A DNA stretch of 38,112 nt from the IMG/VR virus record IMGVR_UViG_3300033145_000809, positions 1 through 38,112 of that record. One strand, 5' to 3'. The stretch comes from a virus. A program made the position numbers and the translations under genes. Of the stretch, positions 5,930 to 20,024 are shown piece by piece (the first letter of the stretch is position 1; the number at the start of each line of letters is the position of its first letter). The notes beneath the pieces were generated by a model. The model had not been told where the DNA came from. It made no database searches and saw only the letters and a list, made by a program, of their open reading frames with translations.

Positions 5930-6065
5930 AATAATAAAACCAGGCGAAGGGTGTTGAATGGTTGCAATACAGAAACCACCGCACTCGTTTCCGAAATGCG
6001 ACCCATGCCTGGAGTTTTTTAATGATTGTACATTGTATTGCATTTGATTCAACAATACAAATATA
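5930..6065 (-). promoter_or_regulatory. Promoter and structured leader RNA, copy 1 of 4
   Basis: The -7 box TATATTTG (6065-6058) is followed by a 5' segment starting TGTTGAAT. The fold, given as plus-strand positions, is: P1 6007-6012 with 5940-5945 (CCAGGC/GCCTGG); P2 6001-6004 with 5949-5952 (GGGT/ACCC); P3 5997-6000 with 5980-5983, capped by TCG-GAAA-CGA; P4 TGGT/ACCA. The 5' end makes two long-range helices: 6047-6054 with 5952-5959 (8 bp) and 6034-6042 with 5963-5971 (9 bp). P1 ends 10 bases before the HNH start codon. See copies at 10364, 17146 and 18680. Confidence 0.85.
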
Positions 6066-6101
6066 GTTAAAATTAATGTCATAATTAGCGTTTCATTTAA
6101 T

Positions 6102-6257
6102 TTAATATATACCTAATCCGCTTTCGATTTCTTGATCGTCTCCGTGAATTAAACCATCTTCATTAAATATATTTTCGCAAATACAATCTTCCCATCGTTC
6201 ACCGCAACAAGGGCAATAATCCTTATTTGTTTTCGCAATCTTTTTATATTTTTTCAT
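6102..6257 (-). CDS. Small zinc-ribbon-like protein (51 aa)
   Basis: The start at 6257 overlaps the end of the membrane-protein gene by 14 bases. The product begins MKKYKKIAKTNKDYC and has four Cys as C-P-C-C (15-18) and C-I-C (25-27), a compact metal-binding arrangement, followed by an acidic tail ending in GLGIY. It is the last gene of the operon that includes the radical SAM cassette. Function unknown; metal binding is inferred from the Cys spacing only. Confidence 0.65.
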   Translation of the reverse strand: MKKYKKIAKTNKDYCPCCGERWEDCICENIFNEDGLIHGDDQEIESGLGIY

Positions 6258-6558
6258 GATTGAAATAATTTTGAAGTAACTCTTTTATCTTTTTGGTATT
6301 GCGTAATGTTTCCATATGGACCGGACTGTTCTGTTCGTTGCTGAAGTTTTCCATTTTGCGTAATCCCATTATAGTATCAATGAAACCCACCAAAATATAT
6401 ATCACCAATGCAGCAATGACCAATAGTACATAATGAATAGCCTTCAATTCAACCCCTGCTGTTTGCAGAAAGATTGCCAGTATCAATGCTGAATTTGCAA
6501 TGCCAACATATTTCCTGCCGCGTTCCATATACGCCAACAGCCTGCCTAATCTTTTCAT
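6244..6558 (-). CDS. Small inner-membrane protein of the radical SAM/GT2 cassette (104 aa)
   Basis: A basic N-terminus (MKRLGRLLAYMERGRKY) is followed by two hydrophobic helices at about residues 20-35 and 41-62, then a cytoplasmic-looking charged tail ending in a coiled helix (TKKIKELLQNYF). The start overlaps the glycosyltransferase stop by 4 bases (ATGA), which implies coupled translation. It is too short and has too few helices for a GtrA flippase. It may anchor or aid the glycosyltransferase, which itself has no membrane segment; that is inference from overlap. Confidence 0.75.
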   Translation of the reverse strand: MKRLGRLLAYMERGRKYVGIANSALILAIFLQTAGVELKAIHYVLLVIAALVIYILVGFIDTIMGLRKMENFSNEQNSPVHMETLRNTKKIKELLQNYFNHEKI

Positions 6559-7232
6559 TTGGTTCTGTATTTTTTTATCAATTCAGCCCATGCCTTTAAT
6601 AGATTTAAAAAAAAGTACCTGTTCCTGCCATGTTTCAATAGAAACACTGTCCAGAAAAATGGGTTGTTTACGCTTCGAGCAGACCATGGGTTTTTGTTTT
6701 TAGGATGTTCAATGTGACGTACCTGCGTGCTCATTGTCTTAACGGCCATTCCCTTCTTTATCATCCTGATCCCGAAATCGTAGTCAGAAAGATAGTGTGG
6801 CGGTAATTTTGAAAACCCACCTGAATTAATAAAATCAGGAGCCGTCATAAAAAATGTGCGCCCTGGGAAAGTGTCTATGCGACCACCCTTGGTTATCTTT
6901 TTTGTTTTCCAATCAATCTGTATTCCATATCCATCAGGAATTAATATTTCATTCTTCCTTACTTTGGCACCTTCGGTCAATAAATAATCCCCAAACATTA
7001 TATCATTATTCATAATGCAAATAACATCTTCATCAGTCAATCCCCGGTATGTTTTGATTTGCTTCAGGAAGAAATTGCAGGCACTGGACCAGTAACCGCC
7101 TAGTTCTTTGCGGTTATACTTCATCAGCATAAATTCTGCAAACTGATTATCAAGGCAGTTCTGAAAATAATCATTCCACTTATCGTAATACGGCACGAAT
7201 ACAAAAATCATTTTTGAGGGGTTGAATGACAT
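6555..7232 (-). CDS. GT2-family glycosyltransferase
   Basis: This 225-aa protein has the GT-A fold landmarks. A hydrophobic beta strand leads to a DXD-like metal site (C-I-M-N-N-D, residues 72-77). An acceptor-side loop G-G-F-S (138-141) is followed by the catalytic acidic motif in Y-L-S-D-Y-D-F-G-I-R (147-156, the usual position of the E/D-D motif) and a K-K-G turn. GT2 enzymes move a sugar from a nucleotide-sugar to an acceptor; donor and acceptor cannot be read from sequence. It overlaps the P-loop gene by 53 bases, and a later Met (7211) is an alternative start. It may modify phage DNA, a virion protein or a host glycan. Confidence 0.82.
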   Translation of the reverse strand: MSFNPSKMIFVFVPYYDKWNDYFQNCLDNQFAEFMLMKYNRKELGGYWSSACNFFLKQIKTYRGLTDEDVICIMNNDIMFGDYLLTEGAKVRKNEILIPDGYGIQIDWKTKKITKGGRIDTFPGRTFFMTAPDFINSGGFSKLPPHYLSDYDFGIRMIKKGMAVKTMSTQVRHIEHPKNKNPWSARSVNNPFFWTVFLLKHGRNRYFFLNLLKAWAELIKKYRTK

Positions 7233-7632
7233 TTGATATAAATTGTCCTGACTTTAATACGATATGTTGACAGCCCTTCTGATTAACCATTTCCGCTAAC
7301 CACTGAGACCAGTTATTTTTTAATAAGTCCACAAACTCAGGATTGTCCCCCCTTTCTGTGAAGCGGTTCAGATACTCATCTTTTAATGTAAAATGAGGAT
7401 ATATGAGGATAAATTCTATTCCCTCAGTCAATAATGCTTCCCTGACCTCCTTGTGACTACTCACAAAAATAATTTCATCTTTCCCTAGATGTGCTTTTAT
7501 GTGTCGCATATAATTATTGGGGAAATTGGACTTGTCGAATTTACTACTGTCACTATCCAATATGGATTTATGTAAATTATGGGCATACGTTTTCCCTGTA
7601 CCGGGGAATGCTGAATATACTTCTGTTCTCAT
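7180..7632 (-). CDS. P-loop nucleotide-kinase-like protein
   Basis: This 150-aa protein starts MRTEVYSAFPGTGKT: Walker A is residues 10-15 (PGTGKT), and D-S-D-S-S follows at 26-30. A later strand carries V-S-S-H-K-E-V-R, then Y-P-H-F-T-L-K-x-E-Y-L and an R-G-D turn before N-W-x-x-W. I recognise this as a small P-loop family common in phages, usually annotated only as an ATPase or nucleotide kinase-like protein. It starts 4 bases after the radical SAM stop and overlaps the glycosyltransferase. A kinase step on a nucleoside or modified base is plausible but not shown. Confidence 0.78.
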   Translation of the reverse strand: MRTEVYSAFPGTGKTYAHNLHKSILDSDSSKFDKSNFPNNYMRHIKAHLGKDEIIFVSSHKEVREALLTEGIEFILIYPHFTLKDEYLNRFTERGDNPEFVDLLKNNWSQWLAEMVNQKGCQHIVLKSGQFISNVIQPLKNDFCIRAVLR

Positions 7633-7636
7633 AATT

Positions 7637-8281
7637 TTATTTTTTGTACATATTTATACATCCCATCCACATCCTTAGTGTGCGGGGCGTTGATGGTTCA
7701 AATATTATCGAATTGTCGGTTTCCTTAAACCACTTTTCGGTAAAATATTCTTTTACTCTTGTGTGCTTTTTGTTCACGGCACCGATCTGCTGAGTAACAA
7801 CCAGGAATCCATTATCCCGTAGAAGTTCTGCATTCTCGTAGAACTTATCTCCCCTGCCGAGCTTCTGTTCCTGCTTCTCGTGATAAGTGGCCATTAAAAT
7901 AAGCCTGTGGTGTGGCTTAATGCCAATGAATGCTTCTGGATTGAATAGGTTTGTCTGCAATAGGACATGGTGCCCTTTCTTAACTAGATAATTTATAAGA
8001 GGGACAATATCGGAATACAGCGACGGTTCCCCTCCTGAAATATAAACAGCACTAAGCCAGAGCGGGAATCGTTCTAAGAATATTTTCCATTCTTCAAAAG
8101 TACATTCCTCATATTTCTTCGGCTCCCCGTAGATGAACATAGGGCAATAATCACAGTGGTATGGACATTTTATCGTTGTCACTATGGTACACCTGGCTCC
8201 GCGGCTCATCAACCATCCCCTCTTCTTGAATTCCCTCAGGGTCCAGAAAAATAACCGTCTTCTGTTTTTATCTGTTTTCAT
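7637..8281 (-). CDS. Radical SAM enzyme
   Basis: This 214-aa protein carries the 4Fe-4S motif CX3CX2C (C-P-Y-H-C-D-Y-C; C39, C43, C46), the SAM-binding G-G-E-P (83-86), and later strand motifs L-L-Q-T-N and M-A-T-Y-H-E expected for a partial TIM barrel. The size is close to QueE-like and other minimal radical SAM proteins. There is no SPASM or B12 domain. The Phe typical of viperins after the third Cys is replaced by Pro, so it is not an obvious viperin. Substrate unknown. It is first in a four-gene run with the P-loop, GT2 and membrane proteins, so these probably act on one product. Confidence 0.9.
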   Translation of the reverse strand: MKTDKNRRRLFFWTLREFKKRGWLMSRGARCTIVTTIKCPYHCDYCPMFIYGEPKKYEECTFEEWKIFLERFPLWLSAVYISGGEPSLYSDIVPLINYLVKKGHHVLLQTNLFNPEAFIGIKPHHRLILMATYHEKQEQKLGRGDKFYENAELLRDNGFLVVTQQIGAVNKKHTRVKEYFTEKWFKETDNSIIFEPSTPRTLRMWMGCINMYKK

Positions 8282-8299
8282 TCTTGTTGGGTTGAGGGG

Positions 8300-8503
8300 T
8301 TAAATCTTTAAAGTTCTTTCACATTGAGTAACTGCCCAGTCAATTTTATCATCTTCTATATTATCAACAACTTCATTTATTCCCAATTCAAGATTATTAT
8401 GGCTGTACATTCTTTTAAAAAGATACTGTTGCCCTTCATTGCATTGATTGAGTAATTCTTTCAAATATTGCTTTGCTTGATTTTGTAATGTTTCGTTTTT
8501 CAT
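8300..8503 (-). CDS. Hypothetical protein (67 aa)
   Basis: A short helical, charged protein (MKNETLQNQAKQYLKELL) with one Cys in each half and no recognisable domain. It begins 5 bases after the preceding stop and ends 18 bases before the radical SAM start, so it is part of the operon driven from the leader at 10.4 kb. Confidence 0.65.
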   Translation of the reverse strand: MKNETLQNQAKQYLKELLNQCNEGQQYLFKRMYSHNNLELGINEVVDNIEDDKIDWAVTQCERTLKI

Positions 8504-8508
8504 AATTT

Positions 8509-8784
8509 TTATTTATTATCTGTAAGTAAGGGAGCCTTTAATATTGCATCCTTAATTTCAATAGATGTTTTGGTGCGATTAATTGAATAAACTGCTCTGT
8601 CCCTGTTCCTCTGCTCCTTGCAGATGCGCTCGGTATAGGAAAGGATTAGATTTCTTGCAGTATCGACAGCGGAAATGGTTCCGCAATACCTTGCAATATT
8701 TTCTAATAGCCGTTCCGCTTCTTTTTGTACATCCCATCTCTCAGCTTCTTGCTGGCGGTCTAATGAGTTTCTTGATTTGTGCAT
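8509..8784 (-). CDS. Hypothetical protein (91 aa, helical)
   Basis: A charged helical product (MHKSRNSLDRQQEAERW) rich in Arg, Glu and Lys, with two Cys (residues 34 and 55). No family recognised. It lies between other small ORFs of the middle operon with short gaps. Confidence 0.65.
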   Translation of the reverse strand: MHKSRNSLDRQQEAERWDVQKEAERLLENIARYCGTISAVDTARNLILSYTERICKEQRNRDRAVYSINRTKTSIEIKDAILKAPLLTDNK

Positions 8785-8804
8785 TGGTTATTTATTTAGT
8801 GAGG

Positions 8805-8954
8805 TTAATACACTGCTCTCCAACTTACTATTTCACGCTGCCCGTTGTCAAGAAACTCTATCTGAATGCTTCCCATTTTACCTCTTGCTATTATCTTGCA
8901 TTCCCTTCCTTTCATTGTAGCACGTTTTTCATTATTTCCCCAGCGGTATTTCAT
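8805..8954 (-). CDS. Hypothetical small protein (49 aa)
   Basis: The ATG at 8954 opens a compact basic product, MKYRWGNNEKRATMKGRECK, ending in beta-like strands (SIQIEFLDNG, EIVSWRAVY). It fills the gap between two ORFs of the same operon with 19-20 base spacers. The alternating hydrophobic pattern looks like a small beta barrel. Function unknown. Confidence 0.6.
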   Translation of the reverse strand: MKYRWGNNEKRATMKGRECKIIARGKMGSIQIEFLDNGQREIVSWRAVY

Positions 8955-8973
8955 TGTTCTTTATTTATTGAGA

Positions 8974-9249
8974 TTAATTTTCTTCTGGTTTTTTAAAGTC
9001 TGTTCCAAAGTTTTTATTGGCCCAATCAATATGTTCACTTGAATGACTGATACCCATGCGAAGATTCTGTAATTCTTTACGTAAGTTCTCTGCATCCTTC
9101 ATGGCAAATGCTTCTATTTCCTGAGCATTTTTATATAATAACTGGCTGTGTTCGTAATTCTGAATCAATAGCTTTACAGACTTGCGGAATCTCCACTGTC
9201 TGAAATGTTCTGGCACTCGCTTATAATACCATCGTCTAAATGCTTTCAT
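8974..9249 (-). CDS. Hypothetical basic protein (91 aa)
   Basis: A very basic N-terminus (MKAFRRWYYKRVPEHFRQWR) is followed by a long amphipathic helix and an acidic tail. The early part could contact nucleic acid or membrane, but there is no defined motif. It is spaced 13 bases from the upstream gene. Confidence 0.65.
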   Translation of the reverse strand: MKAFRRWYYKRVPEHFRQWRFRKSVKLLIQNYEHSQLLYKNAQEIEAFAMKDAENLRKELQNLRMGISHSSEHIDWANKNFGTDFKKPEEN

Positions 9250-9262
9250 CTTATCTCTGTTA

Positions 9263-9490
9263 TTATTCGTTTTGCGATTTAATCCAATCTTCTACCCAAT
9301 CTTCCAACGTGTTAATATGCGCTTTATCTGACTTATCTTGTATATAATCACAGATCGCATCTGTTATCTGTTTCTTTGCGTAGGATTCCAAAGCAGCCTT
9401 AATACTTTCTCTCATGCTTCTGACATTGCCCTTATCATATTGATATGCCAAATATTCAATATAATCTAATAATTCTTTTTTTGCTTTCAT
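9263..9490 (-). CDS. Hypothetical protein (75 aa)
   Basis: An all-helical small protein (MKAKKELLDYIEYLAYQYD) with an acidic, Trp-containing C-terminus (EDWVEDWIKSQNE). It is separated by 7 bases from the upstream ORF. No family recognised. Confidence 0.65.
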   Translation of the reverse strand: MKAKKELLDYIEYLAYQYDKGNVRSMRESIKAALESYAKKQITDAICDYIQDKSDKAHINTLEDWVEDWIKSQNE

Positions 9491-9497
9491 TGGTTAA

Positions 9498-9722
9498 TTA
9501 TTTATTAAGGTTGATATAATTTTGTATATAAATATTTTCCGCCTTCTTTAATACCTCCTCTTTTGTATCACCATAATCAAACAAACCAGAATATTTATTC
9601 TCACTATACCCTATTTTCATTCCGCTCACAGTTCTGTTGGTTGTAGTTACCGAATAGATGCTTATTTGATTTCTGCCACGCCTGCGTAATCTTTTTAAAA
9701 GTTTTGTTTTCATATCAATCAA
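9498..9722 (-). CDS. Hypothetical basic protein (74 aa)
   Basis: The N-terminus is strongly basic (KTKLLKRLRRRGRNQ) and precedes a beta-rich stretch with a G-Y-S-E-N-K-Y motif and a terminal helix. ATG codons at 9722 and 9713 are both possible starts. It could bind nucleic acid; no domain is recognised. Confidence 0.6.
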   Translation of the reverse strand: MIDMKTKLLKRLRRRGRNQISIYSVTTTNRTVSGMKIGYSENKYSGLFDYGDTKEEVLKKAENIYIQNYINLNK

Positions 9723-9773
9723 TATTAGTTATTTTAACTGTCTTCCCTTTGATAAATGTAGTTAAGATTTAAA

Positions 9774-9947
9774 TTAGAATAAATCTTTATTATATAGCAT
9801 AGTTATCATCTTATCTGCATTGCGCATTGTTGAAATGACTTCTTTCTTAACCTGAAGCCTGAGAGCCTTCATTGCCCTCATAGTTTCCTTGCGGTTCTCT
9901 ACCGGAAGAGATTCACAGATTTCATGTAGTAGTGCTGTGCTTTTCAT
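9774..9947 (-). CDS. Hypothetical protein (57 aa)
   Basis: The start at 9947 (MKSTALLHEICESLPVE) lies 4 bases after the NUMOD1 gene stop; the frame is open 16 codons further but would overlap that gene. The product is helical, with paired Arg/Lys-Met-Ala-Leu repeats. Function unknown. Confidence 0.6.
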   Translation of the reverse strand: MKSTALLHEICESLPVENRKETMRAMKALRLQVKKEVISTMRNADKMITMLYNKDLF

Positions 9948-9951
9948 GTTT

Positions 9952-10275
9952 TTATATATCAGAATATTTCCATTTAAAACCCCCTGCCGTTTCAACTACT
10001 CCTCTGGCCGCTTTGCTTATTCCTGATTTCTGTACACCAACCGCATGAGCCGCAAGAGTTACACTATCATATAATTTAATGGGCTGGCCGATAAGGTTTA
10101 ATTGGATTACTTTTCTTTTGTAGTTGCCGCGGATGCTTTTGCGCCCGTCATCGAACCCTAAACCGTACACCATATCAAAGGCATTTATTATGTTCTGTGT
10201 TCTCTCTTCTGGTGAAATGTCAAGGCCAAACTTCAACTCATCGGCTATCCTGTTTAGCGCTTCAATTTTTTCCAT
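9952..10275 (-). CDS. NUMOD1-domain protein without nuclease
   Basis: A 107-aa protein. The N-terminal half (about 1-50) is helical and unknown, with G-L-G-F-D-D-G-R-K-S near residue 40. The C-terminal half (about 55-107) matches the NUMOD1 DNA-recognition module of homing endonucleases: V-I-Q-L-N-L-I-G-Q-P-I, then S-V-T-L-A-A-H-A-V-G, then G-I-S-K-A-A and a final G-G-F-K-W-K-Y. No HNH or GIY-YIG catalytic core is present in or next to it, so it is either a remnant or a module reused as a sequence-specific DNA binder. It follows leader copy 2 after a 33-aa ORF. Confidence 0.75.
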   Translation of the reverse strand: MEKIEALNRIADELKFGLDISPEERTQNIINAFDMVYGLGFDDGRKSIRGNYKRKVIQLNLIGQPIKLYDSVTLAAHAVGVQKSGISKAARGVVETAGGFKWKYSDI

Positions 10276-10363
10276 TGCATTTCTCTTTATAGTATTTCTC
10301 GATATCGTTAATTTGGTATTGTATTAACTTCTCATTACTCTGGAGTAACTTTATTATTACCAT
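10262..10363 (-). CDS. First ORF after leader copy 2 (33 aa)
   Basis: The ATG at 10363 is the first start after the structured leader, 10 bases past its closing stem. It encodes MVIIKLLQSNEKLIQYQIND and a basic tail ending CNGKN, overlapping the NUMOD1 gene start by 14 bases. The arrangement suggests coupled translation under control of the leader. No homologue recognised. Confidence 0.5.
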   Translation of the reverse strand: MVIIKLLQSNEKLIQYQINDIEKYYKEKCNGKN

Positions 10364-10498
10364 ATTATGTGAACCGGGCGAAGGTTGTTCAATGGTTGCC
10401 ATGTAGGAACCACCGCATTCATTTCTGAGATGCGAACCTTGCCCGGAATTATTGTCTGTTTGTATTAACATGGCATTTGATTGAACAAAGTAAATATA
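10364..10498 (-). promoter_or_regulatory. Promoter and structured leader RNA, copy 2 of 4
   Basis: The -7 box is TATATTTA (10498-10491). Stems in plus-strand positions: P1 10441-10446 with 10374-10379 (CCGGGC/GCCCGG); P2 GGTT/AACC; P3 CGCA/TGCG capped by TCA-GAAA-TGA; P4 TGGTT/AACCA. Long-range helices: 10480-10488 with 10385-10393 (9 bp) and 10468-10475 with 10397-10404 (8 bp). Compared with copy 1, P1, P2, P3 and both long-range helices change on both strands so that pairing is kept. It heads the operon running to 6102. Confidence 0.85.
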
Positions 10499-10501
10499 CG
10501 A

Positions 10502-10654
10502 TTATTTTTTGTTTTTGATTCGATTTCCCTTATTTTTTTTCGCAGCGTTTTCAAAAATGGCTTTTTCCATGCGGTTCATCTTCTGGATCCGAGGTTTAAC
10601 CAGAATAAGGATAAGGACTCCGACAATAAGACAAGCTAATATTATGATCTTCAT
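10502..10654 (-). CDS. Small single-pass membrane protein (50 aa)
   Basis: The ATG at 10654 encodes MKIIILACLIVGVLILILVK, a single membrane helix right at the N-terminus, followed by a strongly basic 30-residue tail (KKNKGNRIKNKK). It could also be read as an uncleaved signal. It ends just upstream of the promoter of leader copy 2. Confidence 0.65.
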   Translation of the reverse strand: MKIIILACLIVGVLILILVKPRIQKMNRMEKAIFENAAKKNKGNRIKNKK

Positions 10655-10663
10655 TTTAGGTGT

Positions 10664-10888
10664 TTATTTGTTTATCCAGTCGGAGTGATGTTCACTAATC
10701 GGTTTTAGACTTTTGGCATAATCGCTAAGTTCAACATCAATATAGTGTGCAAACTCAATGGCATGATGCTTTGCGTAAAACTTCATTAGGTCTATTGTGA
10801 GGGTCGCTGAAACCGTTTGGCTCCCCTCTGGTAGATCATTGAATTTCTGTTCTAATATTTCTTCGAATGTTTCTTCTGCTGTTTTCAT
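10664..10888 (-). CDS. Hypothetical protein (74 aa)
   Basis: A helical acidic protein (MKTAEETFEEILEQKFNDLP) with several His (KHHAIEFAH, EHHSDW). No known domain. It starts 20 bases after the upstream gene and ends 9 bases before the small membrane protein. Confidence 0.65.
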   Translation of the reverse strand: MKTAEETFEEILEQKFNDLPEGSQTVSATLTIDLMKFYAKHHAIEFAHYIDVELSDYAKSLKPISEHHSDWINK

Positions 10889-10908
10889 TGATTAAATTTT
10901 AATGTATT

Positions 10909-11112
10909 TTATGTTTCATCCTTTTTCTCTTTGGGCATCTCATCAACTATCTTGCTCATTCCACGAGCAATGTTTATTGTTGCATCTCGGATGTTCTGAA
11001 AAGCTAACCCGAAGTCCAGGTCATAGCTCTTGAGTTTATTGGCTACATTAAACAGGTCCATGTTTATTTCTGTGAGTCCCTTTATTACGTCTATCGGCTT
11101 TTTATTTTCCAT
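10909..11112 (-). CDS. Hypothetical protein (67 aa)
   Basis: A short helical product (MENKKPIDVIKGLTEINMDL) ending in a Lys/Glu-rich tail (PKEKKDET). No motif recognised. It is a member of the small-ORF series between the nuclease and leader copy 2. Confidence 0.65.
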   Translation of the reverse strand: MENKKPIDVIKGLTEINMDLFNVANKLKSYDLDFGLAFQNIRDATINIARGMSKIVDEMPKEKKDET

Positions 11113-11117
11113 GAGTT

Positions 11118-11216
11118 TTATTTTTTAGGTTTATGCTTTAACCACCATCTCCACCCTCTCTCTGAACGCTTAACATCTCCTGAGTTCCAGTGTATAGTTT
11201 TCCATTTTACTTTCAT
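11118..11216 (-). CDS. Tiny basic protein (32 aa)
   Basis: The ATG at 11216 opens MKVKWKTIHWNSGDVKRSER, ending WRWWLKHKPKK. Six Trp and many Lys/Arg in 32 residues give an amphipathic, membrane- or nucleic-acid-seeking look. It fits between its neighbours with a gap of 5 bases on one side and 11 on the other. Small size keeps confidence moderate. Confidence 0.5.
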   Translation of the reverse strand: MKVKWKTIHWNSGDVKRSERGWRWWLKHKPKK

Positions 11217-11227
11217 TGATTAGGATA

Positions 11228-11752
11228 TTAAATTAGTAACTGATTAGCTTCTTTCGCTCCTGTATTTATGGCATCAATTTCCTTGAGTCGTTTTAATACC
11301 TGTACTCTTGTCTGCTTATCAACCTTACCGCTTTTATAAGACATTAAAATTTCATCAATCATTCCTGGCCTCCAAAACAAAAGACCTATTCCTTCTCTCA
11401 TAATCTTTAATACCGCATGGTTGGGAATTAGCGCACCCGCAGAAATACAGATATAGGAATAATCAGCCCACTTCAAATGATCTTTCGCTTGTTGTAGGAC
11501 CGCAGTATGATCACCTAATTTGCATTCTATATTAAATACTTTTTTATCTGTTACTTTAATTATTATATCTGATATTCTGCCAACTTCGGGTATACGAACC
11601 TCATTATAAACTACATGTTTTATCAGTTCCCTGAAGTATATGTTATTTGCATTTTTATAGAATGTTATTTTGTCTTGAAAAAATTGCGTAACCTCCCGTT
11701 GCATTTCATATTCTCCAACATCTCTATATGTTCTGAGTGGAATAAGGTTCAT
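11228..11752 (-). CDS. PD-(D/E)xK nuclease-like protein (MmcB-like)
   Basis: A 174-aa protein with a restriction-endonuclease-like core: a glycine/arginine strand into Asp62 (G-R-I-S-D-I), then I-E-C-K (E76, K78), and a following helix with Q-Q-A-K (Q88) and K-W-A-D. The order D...ExK...Q and the next hydrophobic strand (YSYICIS) match MmcB-like and similar single-domain nucleases. All three acidic/Lys catalytic positions are kept. It could work in repair, recombination or degradation of host DNA. It starts shortly after a small coiled-coil ORF. Confidence 0.72.
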   Translation of the reverse strand: MNLIPLRTYRDVGEYEMQREVTQFFQDKITFYKNANNIYFRELIKHVVYNEVRIPEVGRISDIIIKVTDKKVFNIECKLGDHTAVLQQAKDHLKWADYSYICISAGALIPNHAVLKIMREGIGLLFWRPGMIDEILMSYKSGKVDKQTRVQVLKRLKEIDAINTGAKEANQLLI

Positions 11753-11755
11753 TGA

Positions 11756-11893
11756 TTAGGTGTTCTTCAATTTAATTTGTTCTTTAAGCATCCTATTTTC
11801 TATCCGAAGTTCAGCGTTCTCAATTTTCAATTCCATCGCTTTACCTAAAAGCTCAACTAATGATTCAGATACTTTTTGCGTTTTTGGCTTCAT
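11756..11893 (-). CDS. Small coiled-coil protein (45 aa)
   Basis: The ATG at 11893 encodes MKPKTQKVSESLVELLGKAM, followed by a heptad pattern (ELKIENAELRIENRML) typical of a short leucine zipper. It ends 4 bases before the nuclease start, so it may pair with or regulate it. This is position-based inference. Confidence 0.6.
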   Translation of the reverse strand: MKPKTQKVSESLVELLGKAMELKIENAELRIENRMLKEQIKLKNT

Positions 11894-11904
11894 CTTATTA
11901 GTTG

Positions 11905-12102
11905 TTACAAGTTAAAATCGTTTATTATGTAAATTATATCTTCGGGTATTGTCCCTAATCTGGAGGAGTGGTCCATTATCTTAACTGTTTTGTCGAATGA
12001 TCCGACTTTCTTATACACCTTAAAAACCTGTCTCTCGGTGTAAATCGTTGTTTTAGATATGGCTTTTATAATCTCCTTTTGTTGTTCTGTTAGTTTATTC
12101 AT
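11905..12102 (-). CDS. Hypothetical protein (65 aa), possible DNA binding
   Basis: A product beginning MNKLTEQQKEIIKAISKTTI with alternating helices (ERQVFKVYKKVGSFDKTVKI) that resembles a small helix-turn-helix fold. No family assigned. The stretch 12103-12188 before it contains no gene I can support. Confidence 0.6.
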   Translation of the reverse strand: MNKLTEQQKEIIKAISKTTIYTERQVFKVYKKVGSFDKTVKIMDHSSRLGTIPEDIIYIINDFNL

Positions 12103-12188
12103 TTGATAAGTGTTTGTTACTATTTAAAAGATAATGTTATTACGCCTGTGATTCATTCAATCCGAAAGTATTACAACTCTGCCTTAGC

Positions 12189-12293: not shown

Positions 12294-12304
12294 CTTATTA
12301 ATTA

Positions 12305-12630: not shown

Positions 12631-13724
12631 CATTTACCGATTATATGAGTTACAACTTTATCGATCAGGATACTAACATCGGAATACATTTTTTTATAGC
12701 CAGCGGATTTGAATTCATATTTTGTTTTCAGAGATTCCAGGTCCTCAATCAAATCAATGACCTTTTCGGCATCACCCTTTTTGAGTTCGGACTCCAATGC
12801 CTCTGTCTTTTGCCGCTCGATGCGTTCCTCCTCATCCTTTTTGTCCTGCAGCTCCTTTGCTAGCCGTTCCCGTTCAGCTCGCTCGCTTGCAATTTTGGCG
12901 TCGTTTTCAATCCTAAGTTTTTCCTCTGCATCCCTGCGTTTTTTCTCATCTGCCAGCCGCTTGCGCTCTTTTGCTTCCGCTTCCTTTTTTAGGCGTTCAT
13001 TATCTTTTCTGATCTGCTCTTGCTTCGCCTGATAATCAGATTTCTTTCCCCTGGCATCCGCTAATAAGCCGGCATAAACTTTCTGGTCCATCTTTCCCCA
13101 GTCATTGTCTTCATAATTTTCTATGAACTCATGTAGTGGCGATACCTCTAATGTTCGACTGCGATGCAATGCCTGCTCGATTTCCCTTTGTTTGCGCTCC
13201 TCTTCGGCATCCTTTTCAGCCTGTATCTTGGCCTGGTGGGTCAGCTCAACACCGGAAATATAATTATCCCAAACCTCTGGTTCCATTGCGCCCAGGTTCA
13301 CGGGAATGAAGTCAGCGCCATATTTTTCAAGTTCGGCAACCCTTTTGTTTTGTAGATCATTAATTCGCTTTTCCTCAAGGATCTCATAATGACGTTCGAT
13401 TGATGAGAGTTTCCCTTCAATCCCTTCTGATGCCATGAGCTGCGCATTTTTCCATCCATCAACAAACCGGCCGCCCTGCAAGTAGAACTGTTTTAGCTTG
13501 CGATGTATCTCAGCGGTACCAGTCCGGACCCTTACATATTTCAGGCGCAATGCCCGTGCTTCGCCGCATACTTCTTTTGATATTTTTCTGGCAGCAATAT
13601 CATTAAATTCATTTTCAAGCTCAACCATCTTGTCCAGCATAGGTTGAAAGAGGTCAGAAATTTCCTTTGCCTTTGATTCCTCAAGGCCGTAATCCTTTGC
13701 ATTAATTTTTACTAATTCGCTCAT
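12630..13724 (-). CDS. Coiled-coil protein of the recombination/replication block (364 aa)
   Basis: The N-terminal 110 residues are helical with a conserved-looking Y-V-R-V-R-T-G segment. The middle (about 160-215) has E-K-Y-G-A-D-F-I-P and W-D-N-Y-I-S. The remaining length is a long Arg/Lys/Glu-rich coiled coil (about 225-320) and a final helical domain. Proteins of this build, such as the DUF1351 type, are often found next to RecT-like genes in phages, but I cannot assign the family firmly. It stands between the replication genes and a small membrane protein that overlaps its stop codon. Confidence 0.75.
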   Translation of the reverse strand: MSELVKINAKDYGLEESKAKEISDLFQPMLDKMVELENEFNDIAARKISKEVCGEARALRLKYVRVRTGTAEIHRKLKQFYLQGGRFVDGWKNAQLMASEGIEGKLSSIERHYEILEEKRINDLQNKRVAELEKYGADFIPVNLGAMEPEVWDNYISGVELTHQAKIQAEKDAEEERKQREIEQALHRSRTLEVSPLHEFIENYEDNDWGKMDQKVYAGLLADARGKKSDYQAKQEQIRKDNERLKKEAEAKERKRLADEKKRRDAEEKLRIENDAKIASERAERERLAKELQDKKDEEERIERQKTEALESELKKGDAEKVIDLIEDLESLKTKYEFKSAGYKKMYSDVSILIDKVVTHIIGK

Positions 13725-13746
13725 TGTTTTGATGTGTTAATTATGG

Positions 13747-14385
13747 TTAAAGATCGTATAATGGATCCGTTTCATTTGTCACCGGGATGTCTTCTATTTC
13801 AATTCCTACCTCAGTATCACCACGAAGTAAGGCTATGAGATTGGGAAAATTCTTTTTCATATACTCCGCACCGTTAGCCTTTTTTAATCCCGAAAGTGAG
13901 CTATGTCCTATCTGCCCGAAATCTGAATATCGCTTTTTATTTACCTCAAATGTAGAGGCAATACATTCGTTTCGGTTTGTGACGTAAAGTTTATTAGCGT
14001 CAAAATCTTTATGCCGGTGCCTTCTCATACCATACACCCGGAACCATTTATCAAATAATTCCTGTGAACTGAAATTTATAATCGGCTCCATCGCCTCCGG
14101 TTTGTCAGAAAAATTGAATTCATATCCAAGCGAACCTAAATCAAATAAATTCATTAAATCTTTAAGGACATATCCTGGTTTATATCTTTTGACAAGTCTA
14201 ACAAATGTAATGAGTTCAGAAATTGTACATTCATCTACCGATCCTATTCCTATGCTGTCAATAGTCTTCTTTGAATATTCTAAAAGACTACTGGCAATAT
14301 GTTCATCTGACATATTTTTTATCTTGTTTTTTTCATCAGATGAATCCTTAATCACTTTTTCAAACATCTCCTCAATTACTTCCAT
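13747..14385 (-). CDS. Replication-block hypothetical protein (212 aa)
   Basis: This gene overlaps the end of the replication initiator by 14 bases, so the two are translated together. The product is helical at the N-terminus (MEVIEEMFEKVIKDSSDEKN) and then mixed, with R-V-Y-G-M-R-R-H-R-H near residue 115 and an acidic C-terminus. The place right after an initiator is where lambda-like phages carry a helicase loader, but there is no Walker A here and I cannot assign that role. Confidence 0.7.
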   Translation of the reverse strand: MEVIEEMFEKVIKDSSDEKNKIKNMSDEHIASSLLEYSKKTIDSIGIGSVDECTISELITFVRLVKRYKPGYVLKDLMNLFDLGSLGYEFNFSDKPEAMEPIINFSSQELFDKWFRVYGMRRHRHKDFDANKLYVTNRNECIASTFEVNKKRYSDFGQIGHSSLSGLKKANGAEYMKKNFPNLIALLRGDTEVGIEIEDIPVTNETDPLYDL

Positions 14386-15133
14386 TTTTTTCTTGTTTCA
14401 ATCTATTTAATAACTCCTCTTCTAAATTCATTTTTTCCACTTCTGTGAGTCCCTGTTTGGGTGCTTCTAATTCATCGTTGAAATTCTTATCAGATAAATA
14501 GGTTCTGGCTTTCTTTAAATATTTAGGGTCTTCTTGAGTTTTAGCATAAGCCGAAATCATTTGTATAGCTTTTTGCTGTTCCGCTTTGATTAATCCCTTC
14601 CAGTATTTTAGTGATGAATCTTTATCAGTTTTATTTTTCCCTGTTAATCTATGATATTCATTCCAGAATAATTCAAACGCTATATTAATATTATTCTTAT
14701 CATTATTATCTTTCTTTTCTTTCTTGTATGTGTCCGCTGGTTGTCCATCAGTTGTCCGCTGGTTGTCCGCTGGTTGTCCGTTTTGTTGTTCATTATATTG
14801 ATGGTCACTCCATGAAAGTATTGTTATAAGTCTGTTGCGGTTGGTTTTCTGTTGTTCAATCTGCTGTTCGCTTTTTTCAAAAAAGGTTAAAATTCTTTCA
14901 ATCGTACTTTCCTTAATTCCTGTTTTCGATGCAAGGTCTTTTCTACCCGTAATCAATTGTCCTGGTTCCAGCCTTACGTTTTCACCATTAAACATAAACT
15001 CTCTTTCTTTACTGGACGCCCTTAATAATAACTCTATCCAAATATGAACTTTATTGGATTGGTTGTACCAGCCTTTTTCCCTTAATTTTCTATGAACTTT
15101 TATCCACCCCATTTCCATAATGGTTTCTCCCAA
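14372..15133 (-). CDS. Replication initiator / DnaD- or O-like protein
   Basis: A 253-aa protein; ATG codons at 15133, 15118 and 15112 are all in frame. The N-terminal 105 residues (G-W-I-K-V-H-R-K-L, L-E-P-G-Q-L-I-T-G-R-K-D-L, G-I-K-E-S-T-I-E-R) form the winged-helix found at the start of phage O/DnaD replisome organisers. A polar linker (about 118-145) follows, encoded by 11-bp DNA repeats. The C-terminal part (F-E-L-F-W-N-E-Y, then L-K-Y-W-K-G-L-I) resembles the DnaD-like helicase-recruiting domain. It should bind the origin and recruit host DnaB helicase. Confidence 0.8.
   Translation of the reverse strand: MGETIMEMGWIKVHRKLREKGWYNQSNKVHIWIELLLRASSKEREFMFNGENVRLEPGQLITGRKDLASKTGIKESTIERILTFFEKSEQQIEQQKTNRNRLITILSWSDHQYNEQQNGQPADNQRTTDGQPADTYKKEKKDNNDKNNINIAFELFWNEYHRLTGKNKTDKDSSLKYWKGLIKAEQQKAIQMISAYAKTQEDPKYLKKARTYLSDKNFNDELEAPKQGLTEVEKMNLEEELLNRLKQEKNGSN
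14640..14784. other. Candidate replication origin: 11-bp iterons and AT-rich tract inside the initiator gene
   Basis: Five units of 11 bp run in tandem from 14730 to 14784: GTGTCCGCTGG, TTGTCCATCAG, TTGTCCGCTGG, TTGTCCGCTGG, TTGTCCGTTTT. Because 11 is not a multiple of 3, the repeat changes reading frame from unit to unit, so DNA rather than protein is under selection. A very AT-rich tract (about 14640-14729) abuts it, as in the lambda origin within gene O, and is a likely unwinding element. The 11-bp period keeps all units on the same helix face. Confidence 0.65.
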
Positions 15134-15137
15134 AAGA

Positions 15138-15271
15138 TAAAGCCCGTTCGCTGCTGGGTAAACACGGTCATGTCCGCATAAGCAGTTACTGAGGCTTTAA
15201 ATTTTAAGTTTGAATACATGATTGAATGTTTACCCAACAGCAAAGATACAAATTATGCGTATACCATCAAA
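15138..15271 (-). promoter_or_regulatory. Promoter and structured leader of the replication operon
   Basis: TTTG (15271-15268), a 19-base spacer and TATCTTTG (15248-15241) form a full consensus promoter just after the annealing-protein gene. The RNA begins near 15236 and its 5' segment (15227-15241) is complementary over 15 bp, with one G-U, to 15150-15164 near the initiator start. A closing stem TAAAGCC/GGCTTTA (15193-15199 with 15138-15144), an inner stem CTGCT/AGCAG (15181-15185 with 15151-15155) and a CGG/CCG hairpin compete with or complete the fold. The layout matches the four-copy leader family, but the sequence differs. Confidence 0.7.
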
Positions 15272-15275
15272 GGGA

Positions 15276-16139
15276 TTACATCAATTTCCCAGGTTCCGGG
15301 GTCTTTTGATCAACCGGCTTGTCATCGCTCAGGTCCTGGGTGTTGGTTTTTGGTGGCTTTGTACCCTGTATCCGCCCAAATGCCTGGTCAGGGGTTGTAT
15401 CCCCATCCTTAAATGATTGCTCTAATCCGACCAATGATTTTATTTCCTCGGCTTTAATACCGGCTTCCGCCTTTACTCCGCAATATTCAAGGATTTCGGC
15501 CTCAGTTGCCCCATGCTTATTTTTAAAATGCTTGATCCATTGAGTCCGCGCCTTTAATAATTTTTGCTCATCACTCAAATCTCCGGTAATCGTATCAAGG
15601 GCGGCATTGTAAACCTTATCAGTAATGGAACGGGGAATTACCCTCAATACGGCATTCCGGTACGCAATGGCGGCGGCGGCAAGGCCGGTTGTGTTAATCA
15701 TATCCTCATTGTACCTCCTGCCGTTACGATCAAGGATTTTGCGCCGTACTTCCGCTTTCAATGCAAAGTTAGTTTCGAGATCAAAAGCAACCGCCTCTGC
15801 AGTAACGTAATTTTGTGATACCTCAGATACCCGGTATTCGGCCCTAAAATTGCCGTATGATTGTGCGAGTATCGCTGCCAAATGGACCGTTGGCCCTTTG
15901 ATCTTTTTCCCGGCCCTGGGTAATTCGTATCCACATGATGCCGCTGTATCTTTTGACATTGTTACAATTACAATCGCATTATCAACGCATCGTCGCAAAT
16001 CTCTTGGATAAGCTTTCGCCGTTGTAATTTGAGTGTCAATTTGTGCCGCTTGCGCTTGTTGGTAAGTCGGAACTTCTGAATGAATATGTGTAATTTCATT
16101 CATGTTTACCTGTGATTCTTTTTCAAATTCGTTTCCCAT
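15276..16139 (-). CDS. Phage recombinase, RecT-like single-strand annealing protein (putative)
   Basis: A 287-aa protein. After a 40-residue polar N-terminus, the core (about 42-190) holds the motifs of a phage recombination family: A-Y-P-R-D, a helix with T-M-S-K-D-T-A-A-S-C, P-R-A-G-K-K-I-K-G-P-T-V-H-L-A, S-Y-G-N-F-R, and T-A-A-A-I-A-Y-R-N-A-V-L-R-V-I-P. The C-terminus is an acidic, Pro-rich tail. It lies directly downstream of a RecE-like exonuclease, the classic exonuclease/annealase pair. The family name is by recall of its motifs; a profile search should confirm it. Confidence 0.72.
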   Translation of the reverse strand: MGNEFEKESQVNMNEITHIHSEVPTYQQAQAAQIDTQITTAKAYPRDLRRCVDNAIVIVTMSKDTAASCGYELPRAGKKIKGPTVHLAAILAQSYGNFRAEYRVSEVSQNYVTAEAVAFDLETNFALKAEVRRKILDRNGRRYNEDMINTTGLAAAAIAYRNAVLRVIPRSITDKVYNAALDTITGDLSDEQKLLKARTQWIKHFKNKHGATEAEILEYCGVKAEAGIKAEEIKSLVGLEQSFKDGDTTPDQAFGRIQGTKPPKTNTQDLSDDKPVDQKTPEPGKLM

Positions 16140-16170
16140 CTTGCTTTTTTTAAGTGTTTGTGTATATTAA

Positions 16171-17145
16171 TTATTTATCAAAGAATTCAAAATCATTTTT
16201 ATAAAAGTATCCAGGTATTTCGGGATAGCCTATGCGCTGTCCCTTCCAGTCCGGTTGCAGGAATATTGAGTATCCGGGCCACTCGTTACGCTCTGAGCAA
16301 AGTATCCAATAATCAATGAGCTTTTGAAAATGCATCGCTCCGGGCATCAACTCAACGGTCCTATCCGAATGATTTATATTATAGGTCCACTCTGAAGAAT
16401 CATGAATAAGAAAATCAAATGGAGGTTCTGACTCCTGAGCAACCCATAAAAATGTTTTCCAGGTGCCCGTTAATATGAATTCCAAAAACTGGTACATTGC
16501 TGCTGATATATGATACTGCCATTTGTCAACTTCCTTGTTGAATCTTTCAGGCTTCGGAAGGCCCAGGCGGGTTTTTTTCCAGTCAATGATTTTTTTAGCC
16601 GTCTTGAGGTCCGTCCGGTATTTGAATTTCTGACCCTGGTATTCTAAAAAGTGAGACTGTTCAGCAGATCCAATTTTTATCATATGAGAGATCGTTGGGG
16701 ACAGATGCGGATTGCCATTCAGTAGCTCATCAATCATTGATTCAGCTATTTTCTTCTGCTCCTCTGAGCATGGCTCCCGTCCCTGGTTTGAATCAATCTC
16801 ACATTCAATGGCCTCGGTGTATGCCTTTGTCCCGAATCCATACGGCAGGTTTGTCCGGGGATTAACCGGGGGCTTGAAGATAAAAAACTCCTTTTCAAAA
16901 TCAGACAAATCTCCCTTATTAGTCAAACTGGCCAACTGAGAATGATATACGGATCCCTGAGATATGGCAGCGGAGTCCTTGTCTTCCGGATGGTCCAATG
17001 CGTAGCGGGCGTATTTTGGGGATACCAGCATTAGTTTAAGCATGGATGAGCTGCAAAACTCTTTAAATGAGTTGCCATTGTGATAGGTTTCATTGGAGAT
17101 CTCCGAAGGTTTCGATATGTGTGGAAGTGTTAAATGTGTTTCCAT
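16171..17145 (-). CDS. RecE/YqaJ-like exonuclease (PD-(D/E)xK)
   Basis: A 324-aa protein with the RecB-nuclease/RecE core in order: a helix ending G-S-V-Y-H-S-Q-L (64-71, H68 being the usual first motif), then K-Y-R-T-D-L (the catalytic Asp, about residue 178), I-I-D-W-K-K-T (the D-x-K motif, about 187-192), and a following helix Q-Y-H-I-S-A-A-M-Y (the QxxxY motif). It should resect double-stranded ends and load the annealing protein encoded next. The ATG at 17145 begins METHLTLP and lies 16 bases after the closing stem of leader copy 3. Confidence 0.83.
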   Translation of the reverse strand: METHLTLPHISKPSEISNETYHNGNSFKEFCSSSMLKLMLVSPKYARYALDHPEDKDSAAISQGSVYHSQLASLTNKGDLSDFEKEFFIFKPPVNPRTNLPYGFGTKAYTEAIECEIDSNQGREPCSEEQKKIAESMIDELLNGNPHLSPTISHMIKIGSAEQSHFLEYQGQKFKYRTDLKTAKKIIDWKKTRLGLPKPERFNKEVDKWQYHISAAMYQFLEFILTGTWKTFLWVAQESEPPFDFLIHDSSEWTYNINHSDRTVELMPGAMHFQKLIDYWILCSERNEWPGYSIFLQPDWKGQRIGYPEIPGYFYKNDFEFFDK

Positions 17146-17313
17146 TGTTCCATATATAAATACCGGACTTAGGATTGTCTAATGGTGTCAGCACAGAAAC
17201 CACCCCGCAGCGTTTCCAGTGCAAGATCCATATCCGGTAAATTATTAGTCATTTTCATTATGCTGACTTCGTTTAGACAATACAAATATACACCTTCCCT
17301 TGTTCAAATCAAA
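17146..17313 (-). promoter_or_regulatory. Promoter and structured leader RNA, copy 3 of 4
   Basis: TTTG (17313-17310), 19-base spacer, TATATTTG (17290-17283): full consensus. Stems in plus-strand positions: P1 17233-17238 with 17162-17167 (ACCGGA/TCCGGT); P2 GGAT/ATCC; P3 TTGCA/TGCGG with a GAAA tetraloop; P4 TGGT/ACCA. Long-range helices: 17273-17281 with 17174-17182 (9 bp) and 17261-17267 with 17187-17193 (7 bp). It drives the recE-like and annealase genes. A 27-codon ORF starting at an ATG inside the leader ends before the gene. Confidence 0.85.
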
Positions 17314-17511
17314 TTAATTCACCCCAAAGGTTCCGGGAAATGCATGGTATTTTTTCCGCTCCGATACTCTGATAATAGACATTGATTCATCTGCATTTTG
17401 CCTATAGCTGAACGTGACTTTGAACACTTCATCACCGACAAAATCAAGTTTCCGATCCCGAATTAACATCCGGTCTTCGATCGCCTGGCTATGTATTTTT
17501 CCCACTTTCAT
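17314..17511 (-). CDS. Hypothetical protein (65 aa)
   Basis: A small mixed alpha/beta product (MKVGKIHSQAIEDRMLIRDR) with a beta hairpin (EVFKVTFSYRQ) and a terminal GTFGVN. No family recognised. Its stop lies one base upstream of the -33 box of leader copy 3, so its end and that promoter are packed together. Confidence 0.6.
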   Translation of the reverse strand: MKVGKIHSQAIEDRMLIRDRKLDFVGDEVFKVTFSYRQNADESMSIIRVSERKKYHAFPGTFGVN

Positions 17512-17575
17512 TGTTCACAAGTATTTAATAAGTATTGCGTAAATATAAGTTATTAAAATGTTATTAACAAATTAG

Positions 17576-18091
17576 TTATTTAGCACTAATCTCAACCATT
17601 TCAAAGGGATATATAAAACCGCCCTTGCAATCCTTGCCAATATTAATTACATATTTTGCATGATCCTTGCGAATTCCGGTCACATAAACGATATCACCAG
17701 GATTGAATTTCGTGCCTAATTTATTTGACAATGTTAATTTATCACCGATTGAATATTTCGGCTTTATCCCATGCGCCGCAACCCAGTCTAATACATTTTT
17801 GTCCACAACCATTCTTTTACGGTAACTCAAATCTTCAAGCCATTCACAAAATTGCAAATCGATATTGTAATATCCAGAGCTTGTTTCAATATCACTTGCC
17901 ATTTCATAACCGTTATCAGAGAGGTAAAGACCGTTCAGATCTTCTGCAATATCTTCTGGATCACTGTCGCTCCAATTATTTTCGATAACTTCCAGTGCCA
18001 TTTTTAGATAAAATTCTTTTTCTTGTTTGGCGGTCAATAGGGATGGCCTTCCCTTTTGGAAGATTTCGTTTTCTTTAAATAGCTTATTCAT
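17576..18091 (-). CDS. Hypothetical protein (171 aa) with C-terminal SH3-like region
   Basis: The N-terminal 80 residues are helical and acidic, including N-N-W-S-D-S-D-P-E-D-I-A. The C-terminal 60 residues have a beta pattern (Y-S-I-G-D-K-L-T-L, F-N-P-G-D-I-V-Y-V-T-G-I, H-A-K-Y-V-I-N-I-G) like small SH3/KOW-type barrels. Function unknown. It sits alone between two gaps of about 65-75 bases, downstream of the HNH relative. Confidence 0.65.
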   Translation of the reverse strand: MNKLFKENEIFQKGRPSLLTAKQEKEFYLKMALEVIENNWSDSDPEDIAEDLNGLYLSDNGYEMASDIETSSGYYNIDLQFCEWLEDLSYRKRMVVDKNVLDWVAAHGIKPKYSIGDKLTLSNKLGTKFNPGDIVYVTGIRKDHAKYVINIGKDCKGGFIYPFEMVEISAK

Positions 18092-18166
18092 CTTACTTGT
18101 ATTTATGTATTTAAGAATTTGGTTTTAAACACTCACCCAGCACCTCCAATGTACAAGGCGTATGGT

Positions 18167-18679
18167 TTATATATGTTTCCATGATGTATAATTACGAATG
18201 TCACATATTGTTGTTGGTGATACATTGAATATTTCAGCTAATTCTCTTTGATATAGTCCAGTTGTTTTTCTTATCACTCTGACCTGGAATTCATTCAATT
18301 TAGATTCAGATTTTAATTCTCCCCTCAGCACTGTCGCCAGCCCTGTGTCAAGAGCGTGCTTATTGTTTTCGGAGTATGTACTCCAAGCAAGATGGTTTAT
18401 ACACGGCTTGTTTTCCGGATTAGGGATAAACGCTTTTCTAACTAATCTGTGGATAGATCCTCTTTTGCGTTTCGTTCCATTAGCATATAAGCCAATCTGT
18501 AAATACCCACCCTGTATCATAGAAGTCCTTAATACGCACTCAGGCTTAGCCATTTGTGCTCTTTTTTTTGCATTATAGTTATAATACCAAACGTTTCTTT
18601 TGATAGACTTAACCCTGCCTAAATCGCTGACTTGGTAACGCCCTTCGTATCCCTCAATGTCTTTCCATGTTTCTTGCAT
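18167..18679 (-). CDS. NUMOD4/HNH homing endonuclease relative with damaged HNH core
   Basis: A 170-aa protein starting MQETWKDIEGYEGRYQVS (NUMOD4) at 18679. It aligns with the protein at 5387-5929 over its whole length, including the C-terminal helix-turn-helix (LYQRELAEIFNVSP). In the nuclease core the intact relative reads N-H-K-D-G, then twelve residues to L-E-W-C-T, whereas this one passes directly from N-H to L-A-W-S-T. About 12 residues, including catalytic Asn/Asp positions, are deleted in frame. It is probably nuclease-dead but may still bind DNA. The frame is open upstream through the leader to 18841. Confidence 0.85.
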   Translation of the reverse strand: MQETWKDIEGYEGRYQVSDLGRVKSIKRNVWYYNYNAKKRAQMAKPECVLRTSMIQGGYLQIGLYANGTKRKRGSIHRLVRKAFIPNPENKPCINHLAWSTYSENNKHALDTGLATVLRGELKSESKLNEFQVRVIRKTTGLYQRELAEIFNVSPTTICDIRNYTSWKHI

Positions 18680-18841
18680 CTTAAAAGAACCTGCCGTAGG
18701 ATTGTCTAATGGTAACAATACAGGAACCACCATGAGAAGTTTCCCAATCACGATCCATAGCAGGTATTTTTTAAATGTTGATAATGATATTGTATTTCGT
18801 TTAGATATAGCTAAGATACAATTAAAATTTTTGGTTATCAA
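18680..18841 (-). promoter_or_regulatory. Promoter and structured leader RNA, copy 4 of 4
   Basis: TTG (18841-18839), 20-base spacer, TATCTTAG (18818-18811). Stems in plus-strand positions: P1 18760-18765 with 18689-18694 (ACCTGC/GCAGGT); P2 GGAT/ATCC; P3 GTGA/TCAT with a GAAA loop; P4 TGGT/ACCA. The second long-range helix is kept (18788-18793 with 18715-18720, 6 bp), but the first is reduced to TCTAA/TTAGA. This copy leads the damaged HNH gene and looks partly degenerate. Confidence 0.8.
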
Positions 18842-19917: not shown

Positions 19918-20024
19918 TGTATTGGTGTTAATCATGGTATAAAAGTACAGCATAAACAAACACGGATCCAGTTTTTAGGGCTGTTTTACAACACCCGTGA
20001 TGTTCAATTAGTTAGATTGATTTC

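What the first reader, a model, noticed from the sequence alone, without database searches (positions are those of the whole stretch)
5930..18841. Four copies of a covarying structured 5' leader RNA in one phage
The copies at 5930-6065, 10364-10498, 17146-17313 and 18680-18841 all run from a TAnnTT[TA][GA]-type -7 box to just before a start codon. They share the order P1-P2-P3(GAAA loop)-P4. P1 is CCAGGC/GCCTGG, CCGGGC/GCCCGG, ACCGGA/TCCGGT or ACCTGC/GCAGGT. P2 is GGGT/ACCC, GGTT/AACC or GGAT/ATCC (twice). The P3 inner pairs are TCG/CGA or TCA/TGA in copies 1 and 2. Both sides of each stem change together, which is strong evidence for RNA structure. P4 and the GAAA loop are constant. I do not recognise it as a known riboswitch or ribozyme. 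Its position suggests a translation switch, a cis antitermination element like HK022 put RNA, or a ligand sensor shared by four early operons.
Basis: partly seen in the sequence, partly recalled or inferred. Interest (0 to 1): 0.92.

Follow-up and report, generated by a model that had tools for sequence, protein, structure and literature searches.

The report
Four C4-type antisense RNAs, one phage
A bacterial virus carries four copies of a small folded RNA, each between a promoter and a gene, and each able to pair with its own start-of-message sequence; they are divergent relatives of the C4 antisense RNAs that phage P1 uses as gene switches, here placed in front of DNA-cutting 'homing' enzyme genes and a recombination nuclease.

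Summary
In detail: four copies on the minus strand, plus a fifth in a related phage contig (L077). Each copy's promoter-proximal leader pairs with a segment inside the folded RNA, and that pairing covaries copy by copy (29 pairs, 15 with two-sided changes, 97.9% of cells paired; slid controls 28-46%). This makes it an antisense/target module, not a free-standing riboswitch-like leader. A permissive Rfam scan places copies 1, 3 and 4 full-length in c4-2 RNA (RF02944, C4 antisense clan) at E about 1e-5 to 1e-6, just below the gathering score. My independent model also lands on a bona fide c4-2 locus in a Bacteroidota genome. True c4-2 loci have the same order (promoter, a1-b1, RNA) but also a second target copy, a2-b2, at the downstream start codon. 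The phage copies lack a2-b2. They sit 9-16 nt before NUMOD4/HNH homing endonucleases (2 here, 1 in L077), a RecE-like exonuclease, or a small ORF with a NUMOD-like gene behind it. Best reading: a divergent C4 antisense subfamily, four largely orthogonal copies, repressing via the leader start site. Mechanism inferred, not shown. New variant of a known kind.

The parts
6058..6065 (-). copy 1: -7 box TATATTTG (Bacteroidota-type promoter)
   Evidence: sequence; start site itself inferred
6048..6054 (-). copy 1: a1 (TGTTGAA), pairs with a' at 5952-5962
6034..6041 (-). copy 1: b1 (GCAATACA), pairs with b' at 5964-5971; ATG overlaps and follows it
5936..6017 (-). copy 1: C4-like RNA core (P1, receptor-like loop, P2, P3 with GAAA, P4 with b', a', P2', P1')
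   Evidence: RF02944 full-length 32.4 bits, E 2.3e-5; R1, R2
5387..5929 (-). NUMOD4 + HNH_3 homing endonuclease after copy 1
   Evidence: Pfam
10491..10498 (-). copy 2: -7 box TATATTTA
10468..10487 (-). copy 2: a1 (TGTTCAA, 10481-10487) and b1 (GCCATGT, 10468-10474)
   Evidence: cognate duplex -20.9 kcal/mol, 0/2000 shuffles
10372..10446 (-). copy 2: C4-like RNA core
   Evidence: R1, R2; no RF02944 hit at E<=1
9952..10363 (-). short ORF (10262-10363) and overlapping 107-aa ORF with weak I-HmuI NUMOD-like match
   Evidence: E 7e-4, below Pfam cut-off
17283..17290 (-). copy 3: -7 box TATATTTG
17259..17279 (-). copy 3: a1 (TGTCTAA, 17273-17279) and b1 (GTCAGCA, within 17259-17267)
   Evidence: cognate duplex -22.4 kcal/mol, 0/2000 shuffles
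17156..17242 (-). copy 3: C4-like RNA core with exact UAUGG/CCUAAG and GAAA
   Evidence: RF02944 35.6 bits, E 2.5e-6
16171..17145 (-). RecE/exonuclease VIII-like (DUF3799) gene after copy 3
18811..18818 (-). copy 4: -7 box TATCTTAG
18787..18806 (-). copy 4: a1/b1, AU-rich; pairs in register but weak (-7.0 kcal/mol), no ATG at b1
18683..18769 (-). copy 4: C4-like RNA core
   Evidence: RF02944 36.6 bits, E 1.1e-5
18167..18679 (-). NUMOD4 protein after copy 4; HNH part has a 12-aa gap against copy 1's enzyme, likely inactive

Best explanation
Each copy is a self-contained C4-type antisense module: promoter, target (a1-b1) at the very 5' end of the transcript, then the folded antisense RNA (P1, receptor-like loop, P2, GAAA-capped P3, P4 hairpin showing b', single-stranded a', P2', P1'), then the start codon of the controlled gene. 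By analogy with P1/P7 C4, the RNA is probably cut from the 5' part of the message (RNase P at the base of P1), and the free RNA pairs through b' and a' with a1-b1 of new transcripts of the same unit, covering the start codon at b1 and lowering translation (and by polarity transcription) through the unit into the homing endonuclease or RecE gene. Shown: structure, strand, covariation, largely cognate pairing, family resemblance. Inferred: processing, action in trans, repression of the downstream gene. Pairing in cis, as a pseudoknot in the unprocessed leader, is possible in the same framework.
For: Covariation in the a1-b1/b'-a' helices and P1, P3. Cognate duplexes -18 to -22 kcal/mol against mostly -1 to -14 for mismatched copies, with 0/2000 shuffles for four of five. 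RF02944 full-length matches to copies 1, 3 and 4. A model of 20 true c4-2 RNAs puts the four copies as the four best window hits. Model R1, built from the phage copies only, gave 3 weak hits in 395 Bacteroidota genomes, one of them (G322:1524240-1524382) exactly on a 76.9-bit c4-2 RNA. True c4-2 loci show promoter, a1-b1 with ATG, RNA and an a2-b2 repeat at the downstream start. Published C4: RNase P processing, a'/b' pairing at the ribosome binding site, many divergent copies per genome (PMC5320573).
Against: Rfam scores are below the gathering score, copy 2 has no RF02944 hit at E<=1, and R2 scores are individually weak (10-17 bits). No a2-b2 at the downstream gene and no convincing target elsewhere in the window, so the classical target is missing. 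Copy 4's own pairing is weak. No transcript, processing or expression data.
Confidence: 0.72

Rival explanations
1. A purely cis-acting pseudoknotted leader: a1-b1 pairs with b'-a' within the same message and sets access to the downstream start codon; no free antisense RNA is made.
For: a1-b1 is on the same transcript and pairs in register in all five copies; no trans target or a2-b2 found; P1' lies only 9-16 nt before the start codon.
Against: The same a1-b1 layout occurs in true c4-2 loci, which also carry an a2-b2 target at the gene start; C4 RNAs are known to act after processing (PMC5320573).
Confidence: 0.35
2. An unrelated new leader family that only resembles c4-2 because both use a GAAA loop with its 11-nt receptor.
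For: Scores below the gathering score; GAAA and UAUGG/CCUAA carry much of the match.
Against: Same order of helices, same place of b' and a', same upstream a1-b1 with ATG, reciprocal hit at a c4-2 locus.
Confidence: 0.15
3. Cis antitermination element (put-like) or ligand-binding riboswitch.
For: Starts at or next to the inferred transcription start; compact fold with a tertiary-contact motif.
Against: Copy-specific covarying antisense pairing; no Rfam riboswitch match; at least two leaders precede single mobile genes.
Confidence: 0.05
4. Conserved coding sequence: an N-terminal extension of the downstream protein.
For: The downstream gene's frame is open through the RNA in copies 1, 2, 4 and L077.
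Against: Copy 4 is open in another frame relative to the RNA, copy 3 is not open, and changes are compensatory in stems.
Confidence: 0.03

Closest known systems
c4-2 RNA (Rfam RF02944, clan CL00128)
   Same: Fold P1/receptor-like loop/P2/P3-GAAA/P4, b' in the P4 loop region and a' after it, a1-b1 with ATG upstream, promoter just before, several divergent copies per genome, present in Bacteroidota.
   Different: Copies score below the gathering score; longer P4/b' region with conserved GGUGGUU and ACCAUU; a2-b2 missing; downstream genes are homing endonucleases or RecE instead of a ~77-aa ORF or an Rha-type regulator.
C4 antisense RNA of phages P1 and P7 (RF01695)
   Same: Phage antisense RNA made from the same transcript as its target, two-part pairing a'/b' (PMC5320573, PMC2864571).
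   Different: No direct RF01695 match here (that scan used strict filters and the same tool also missed c4-2); the regulated gene is not an antirepressor; a2-b2 is absent.
C4-like sRNAs of Acinetobacter baumannii (Group 1, PMC5320573)
   Same: Many copies in one genome whose pairing segment differs while the scaffold is kept.
   Different: Chromosomal, in Gammaproteobacteria, with no described link to homing endonucleases.
RNA hairpins controlling T4-type homing endonucleases (I-TevI, segB, mobE; PMC2988022)
   Same: Translation of a mobile endonuclease held down by RNA structure next to its start.
   Different: Simple hairpins over the ribosome binding site; no antisense module or copy-specific target pairing.

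Membership tests
c4-2 RNA (RF02944) | Match at or above the family's gathering score (41 bits) | tested here: not met
   32.4, 35.6, 36.6 bits for copies 1, 3, 4; none at E<=1 for copy 2
c4-2 RNA (RF02944) | Helix order P1-P2-P3(GAAA)-P4 with UAUGG/CCUAA between P1 and P2 | tested here: met
   Full-length model alignments for copies 3 and 4 and full-length match for copy 1; copies 1, 2, L077 carry the variants CAUGG or CAAGG with CCUUCG (sequence)
c4-2 RNA (RF02944) | Found by a model of other family members | tested here: inconclusive
   R2 ranks the four copies as the best four window hits, but at 10-17 bits, E 0.09-4; reciprocal R1 hit at one c4-2 locus
C4-type antisense module | a1-b1 target upstream, complementary to b'-a' | tested here: met
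C4-type antisense module | a2-b2 target at the start of the downstream gene | tested here: not met
   No repeat of a1-b1 at the gene start (longest shared words 6-10 nt); nine true c4-2 loci have 9-21 nt
C4 antisense RNA (P1/P7) | Processing by RNase P to a ~77-nt RNA | not testable with these tools
   needs RNA-seq or in vitro cleavage
C4 antisense RNA (P1/P7) | Controls an antirepressor gene | tested here: not met
   Downstream genes are NUMOD4/HNH, RecE-like or a short ORF
HK022 put RNA | Antitermination by the nascent RNA acting on RNA polymerase | not testable with these tools
   no sequence match looked for beyond Rfam; not favoured

The most novel reading that the evidence does not exclude
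A C4 antisense scaffold has been adopted by phage homing endonuclease genes as their own built-in control: the RNA travels with the gene, the classical a2-b2 target is dropped, and a1-b1 at the 5' end becomes the sole target, giving four largely orthogonal antisense switches (one moved on to a recombination gene) in a 38-kb phage.
Probability: 0.35. Interest if true: 0.7.

Novelty: new variant of a known kind. Interest (0 to 1): 0.52.

Why it matters
C4 RNAs are among the few phage antisense RNAs with a known role in immunity. Here the scaffold appears in a phage with Bacteroidota-type promoters, in several largely orthogonal copies, attached to mobile endonucleases and a recombination nuclease, and with its target reduced to a1-b1. 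That gives a natural set of antisense switches with different specificities and makes the question of what a1-b1 does in C4 systems directly testable, because here it is the only target found.

Tried and rejected
Rfam at gathering thresholds gave nothing; only the permissive scan of short stretches found c4-2. Searching RF02944 and RF01695 with the genome search missed the copies because of stricter filters, so those negatives carry no weight. Pattern scans of viral contigs gave ~160 loci, mostly chance; only L077 is a homologue. HNH-guided loci gave only the same contig again. BLASTN against phages found nothing relevant. R1 in 788 genomes gave four weak hits; I first read L253 (G322) as chance and changed that when c4-2 was found at the same place; L251 and L252 look like chance, and the G739 hit was not examined. 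HDV-like ribozyme, twister, T-box and group I fragments were considered from the pseudoknot layout and dropped: no Rfam support, and c4-2 fits. Search for a2-b2 or other targets across the window found no convincing start-codon site.
Full report
Observation. The four copies are on the minus strand at the stated places. The core word occurs four times in the window and never in shuffles. The window is a complete-looking virus record with 114-nt end repeats encoding siphovirus-like head genes, DnaD-like and RecE-like proteins. A fifth copy lies before another NUMOD4-type gene in L077, a contig of a related phage (60% identity in a shared 364-aa protein).

Structure. Over 29 pairs, 97.9% of cells are standard pairs, 15 pairs change on both sides, and no shuffle of 500 reaches any measure; sliding the partners by 1-3 columns drops pairing to 28-46%. 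Seven of the two-sided pairs are in a1/b1, eight in P1 and P3. G-U pairs outnumber A-C pairs 10 to 1, so the minus strand is the RNA. P2 was left out of the count because MAFFT misplaces one gap there; read by eye it has five versions, all complementary. Copy 3 has UAUGG opposite CCUAAG between P1 and P2, and all have a GAAA-capped P3; from established knowledge this is the 11-nt tetraloop receptor, so a docked compact fold is likely but untested.

Specificity. Duplex energies between each antisense segment and each leader favour the cognate pair strongly for copies 1, 2, 3 and L077 (-18 to -22 kcal/mol; 0/2000 dinucleotide shuffles each); mismatched pairs lie between about -1 and -14. The closest cross-fits are of copies 1 and 2 to the L077 leader (about -14). 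Copy 4 pairs in register with its own leader but weakly (-7.0), and fits copy 1's leader better (-12.7). Its endonuclease has lost 12 residues across the HNH region, so that unit looks partly decayed.

Identity. At gathering thresholds Rfam is silent. A permissive scan gives RF02944 c4-2 RNA, C4 clan, full length, for copies 1 (32.4 bits, E 2.3e-5), 3 (35.6, 2.5e-6) and 4 (36.6, 1.1e-5); copy 2 gives none at E<=1. Two further tests agree. Model R1, made only from the phage copies, gave 3 hits in 395 Bacteroidota genomes; one of them is exactly at a 76.9-bit c4-2 RNA found later by RF02944. Model R2, made from 20 true c4-2 RNAs, ranks the four copies as the four best hits of the window, on the right strand and in register, though each score is weak.

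What true c4-2 loci look like. RF02944 is present in 9 of 395 Bacteroidota genomes above its cut-off, up to six copies per genome. In the nine loci that I could parse, a 9-21-nt repeat flanks the RNA: once between promoter and RNA (a1-b1, followed by ATG) and once at the start codon of a ~77-aa ORF (a2-b2). L263, a viral contig with a 66-bit c4-2, has the same layout, followed by a 99-aa ORF and an Rha-type regulator. This is the C4 arrangement of P1/P7 (a' and b' pair around the ribosome binding site; RNase P processing; PMC5320573).

How the phage copies differ. They keep promoter, a1-b1 and RNA, and four of five keep an ATG at b1 (sequence). They lack a2-b2: the start codon lies 9-16 nt after P1' and shares no meaningful repeat with the leader. 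No convincing target was found elsewhere in the window. In copies 1, 2, 4 and L077 the downstream frame is open through the RNA, and in copies 1, 2 and L077 an ATG near b1 is in that frame; but copy 4 is open in another frame relative to the RNA and copy 3 is not open, so the RNA, not a peptide, is what is conserved. Translation from the b1 start reading into the endonuclease is a possible output, not a shown one.

Context. Three copies (1, 4, L077) precede NUMOD4-type proteins, copy 2 a short ORF and a NUMOD-like ORF, copy 3 a RecE-like exonuclease. In L103, a related contig with an 87% identical RecE segment, the same place after the same TATATTTG box holds a different leader without this RNA, so the module was gained or lost there. 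This fits an RNA that moves with homing endonucleases, but five copies are too few to prove it. RNA control of homing endonuclease translation by simple hairpins is known in T4-type phages (PMC2988022).

Mechanism. Best supported: C4-type antisense control through a1-b1, in trans after processing or in cis as a pseudoknot. The pairing is well supported; processing, trans action and effect on the downstream gene are inference from the C4 family.

Limits. Five sequences from two related phages; three sub-threshold Rfam matches; no metagenome scan available; the host was not determined (the promoters are of Bacteroidota type); no expression data. Weinberg et al. 2010 list C4 as found in Proteobacteria and phages and c4-a1b1 in Gammaproteobacteria and phages (PMC2864571); I did not find a paper on C4 in Bacteroidota, but RF02944 itself already matches Bacteroidota genomes.

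Noticed in passing
L077 2752-2833 (minus strand): Best hit of the c4-2 model R2 (16.9 bits, E 0.08): long P1, UACGG/CCUAAG, GGAAAC loop. Possibly another C4-like RNA in the related phage; no promoter or a1-b1 seen.
   Followed up: partly
L103 3884-4006: Same RecE-type operon as copy 3 but with a different leader whose 5' end (GGGAATGAA) pairs with TTCATTCC shortly before the gene; overall folding no better than shuffles.
   Followed up: partly
L264-L283: In Bacteroidota genomes c4-2 RNAs repeatedly precede a conserved ~77-aa protein (MSTxTLSKExE...YWLNELAEILDPYLDLE) of unknown function; two members scanned gave no Pfam match above cut-off.
   Followed up: partly
window 1-114 and 37999-38112: Identical 114-nt end repeats: the record is probably a complete circular or circularly permuted genome.
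   Followed up: no
window 19348-19959 (minus strand): Protein with a long Ala/Tyr/Asp-rich low-complexity array from a 9-nt repeat.
   Followed up: no
window 7637-8281 (minus strand): QueE-like radical SAM protein (PHROG 2076), possibly part of a DNA modification pathway.
   Followed up: no
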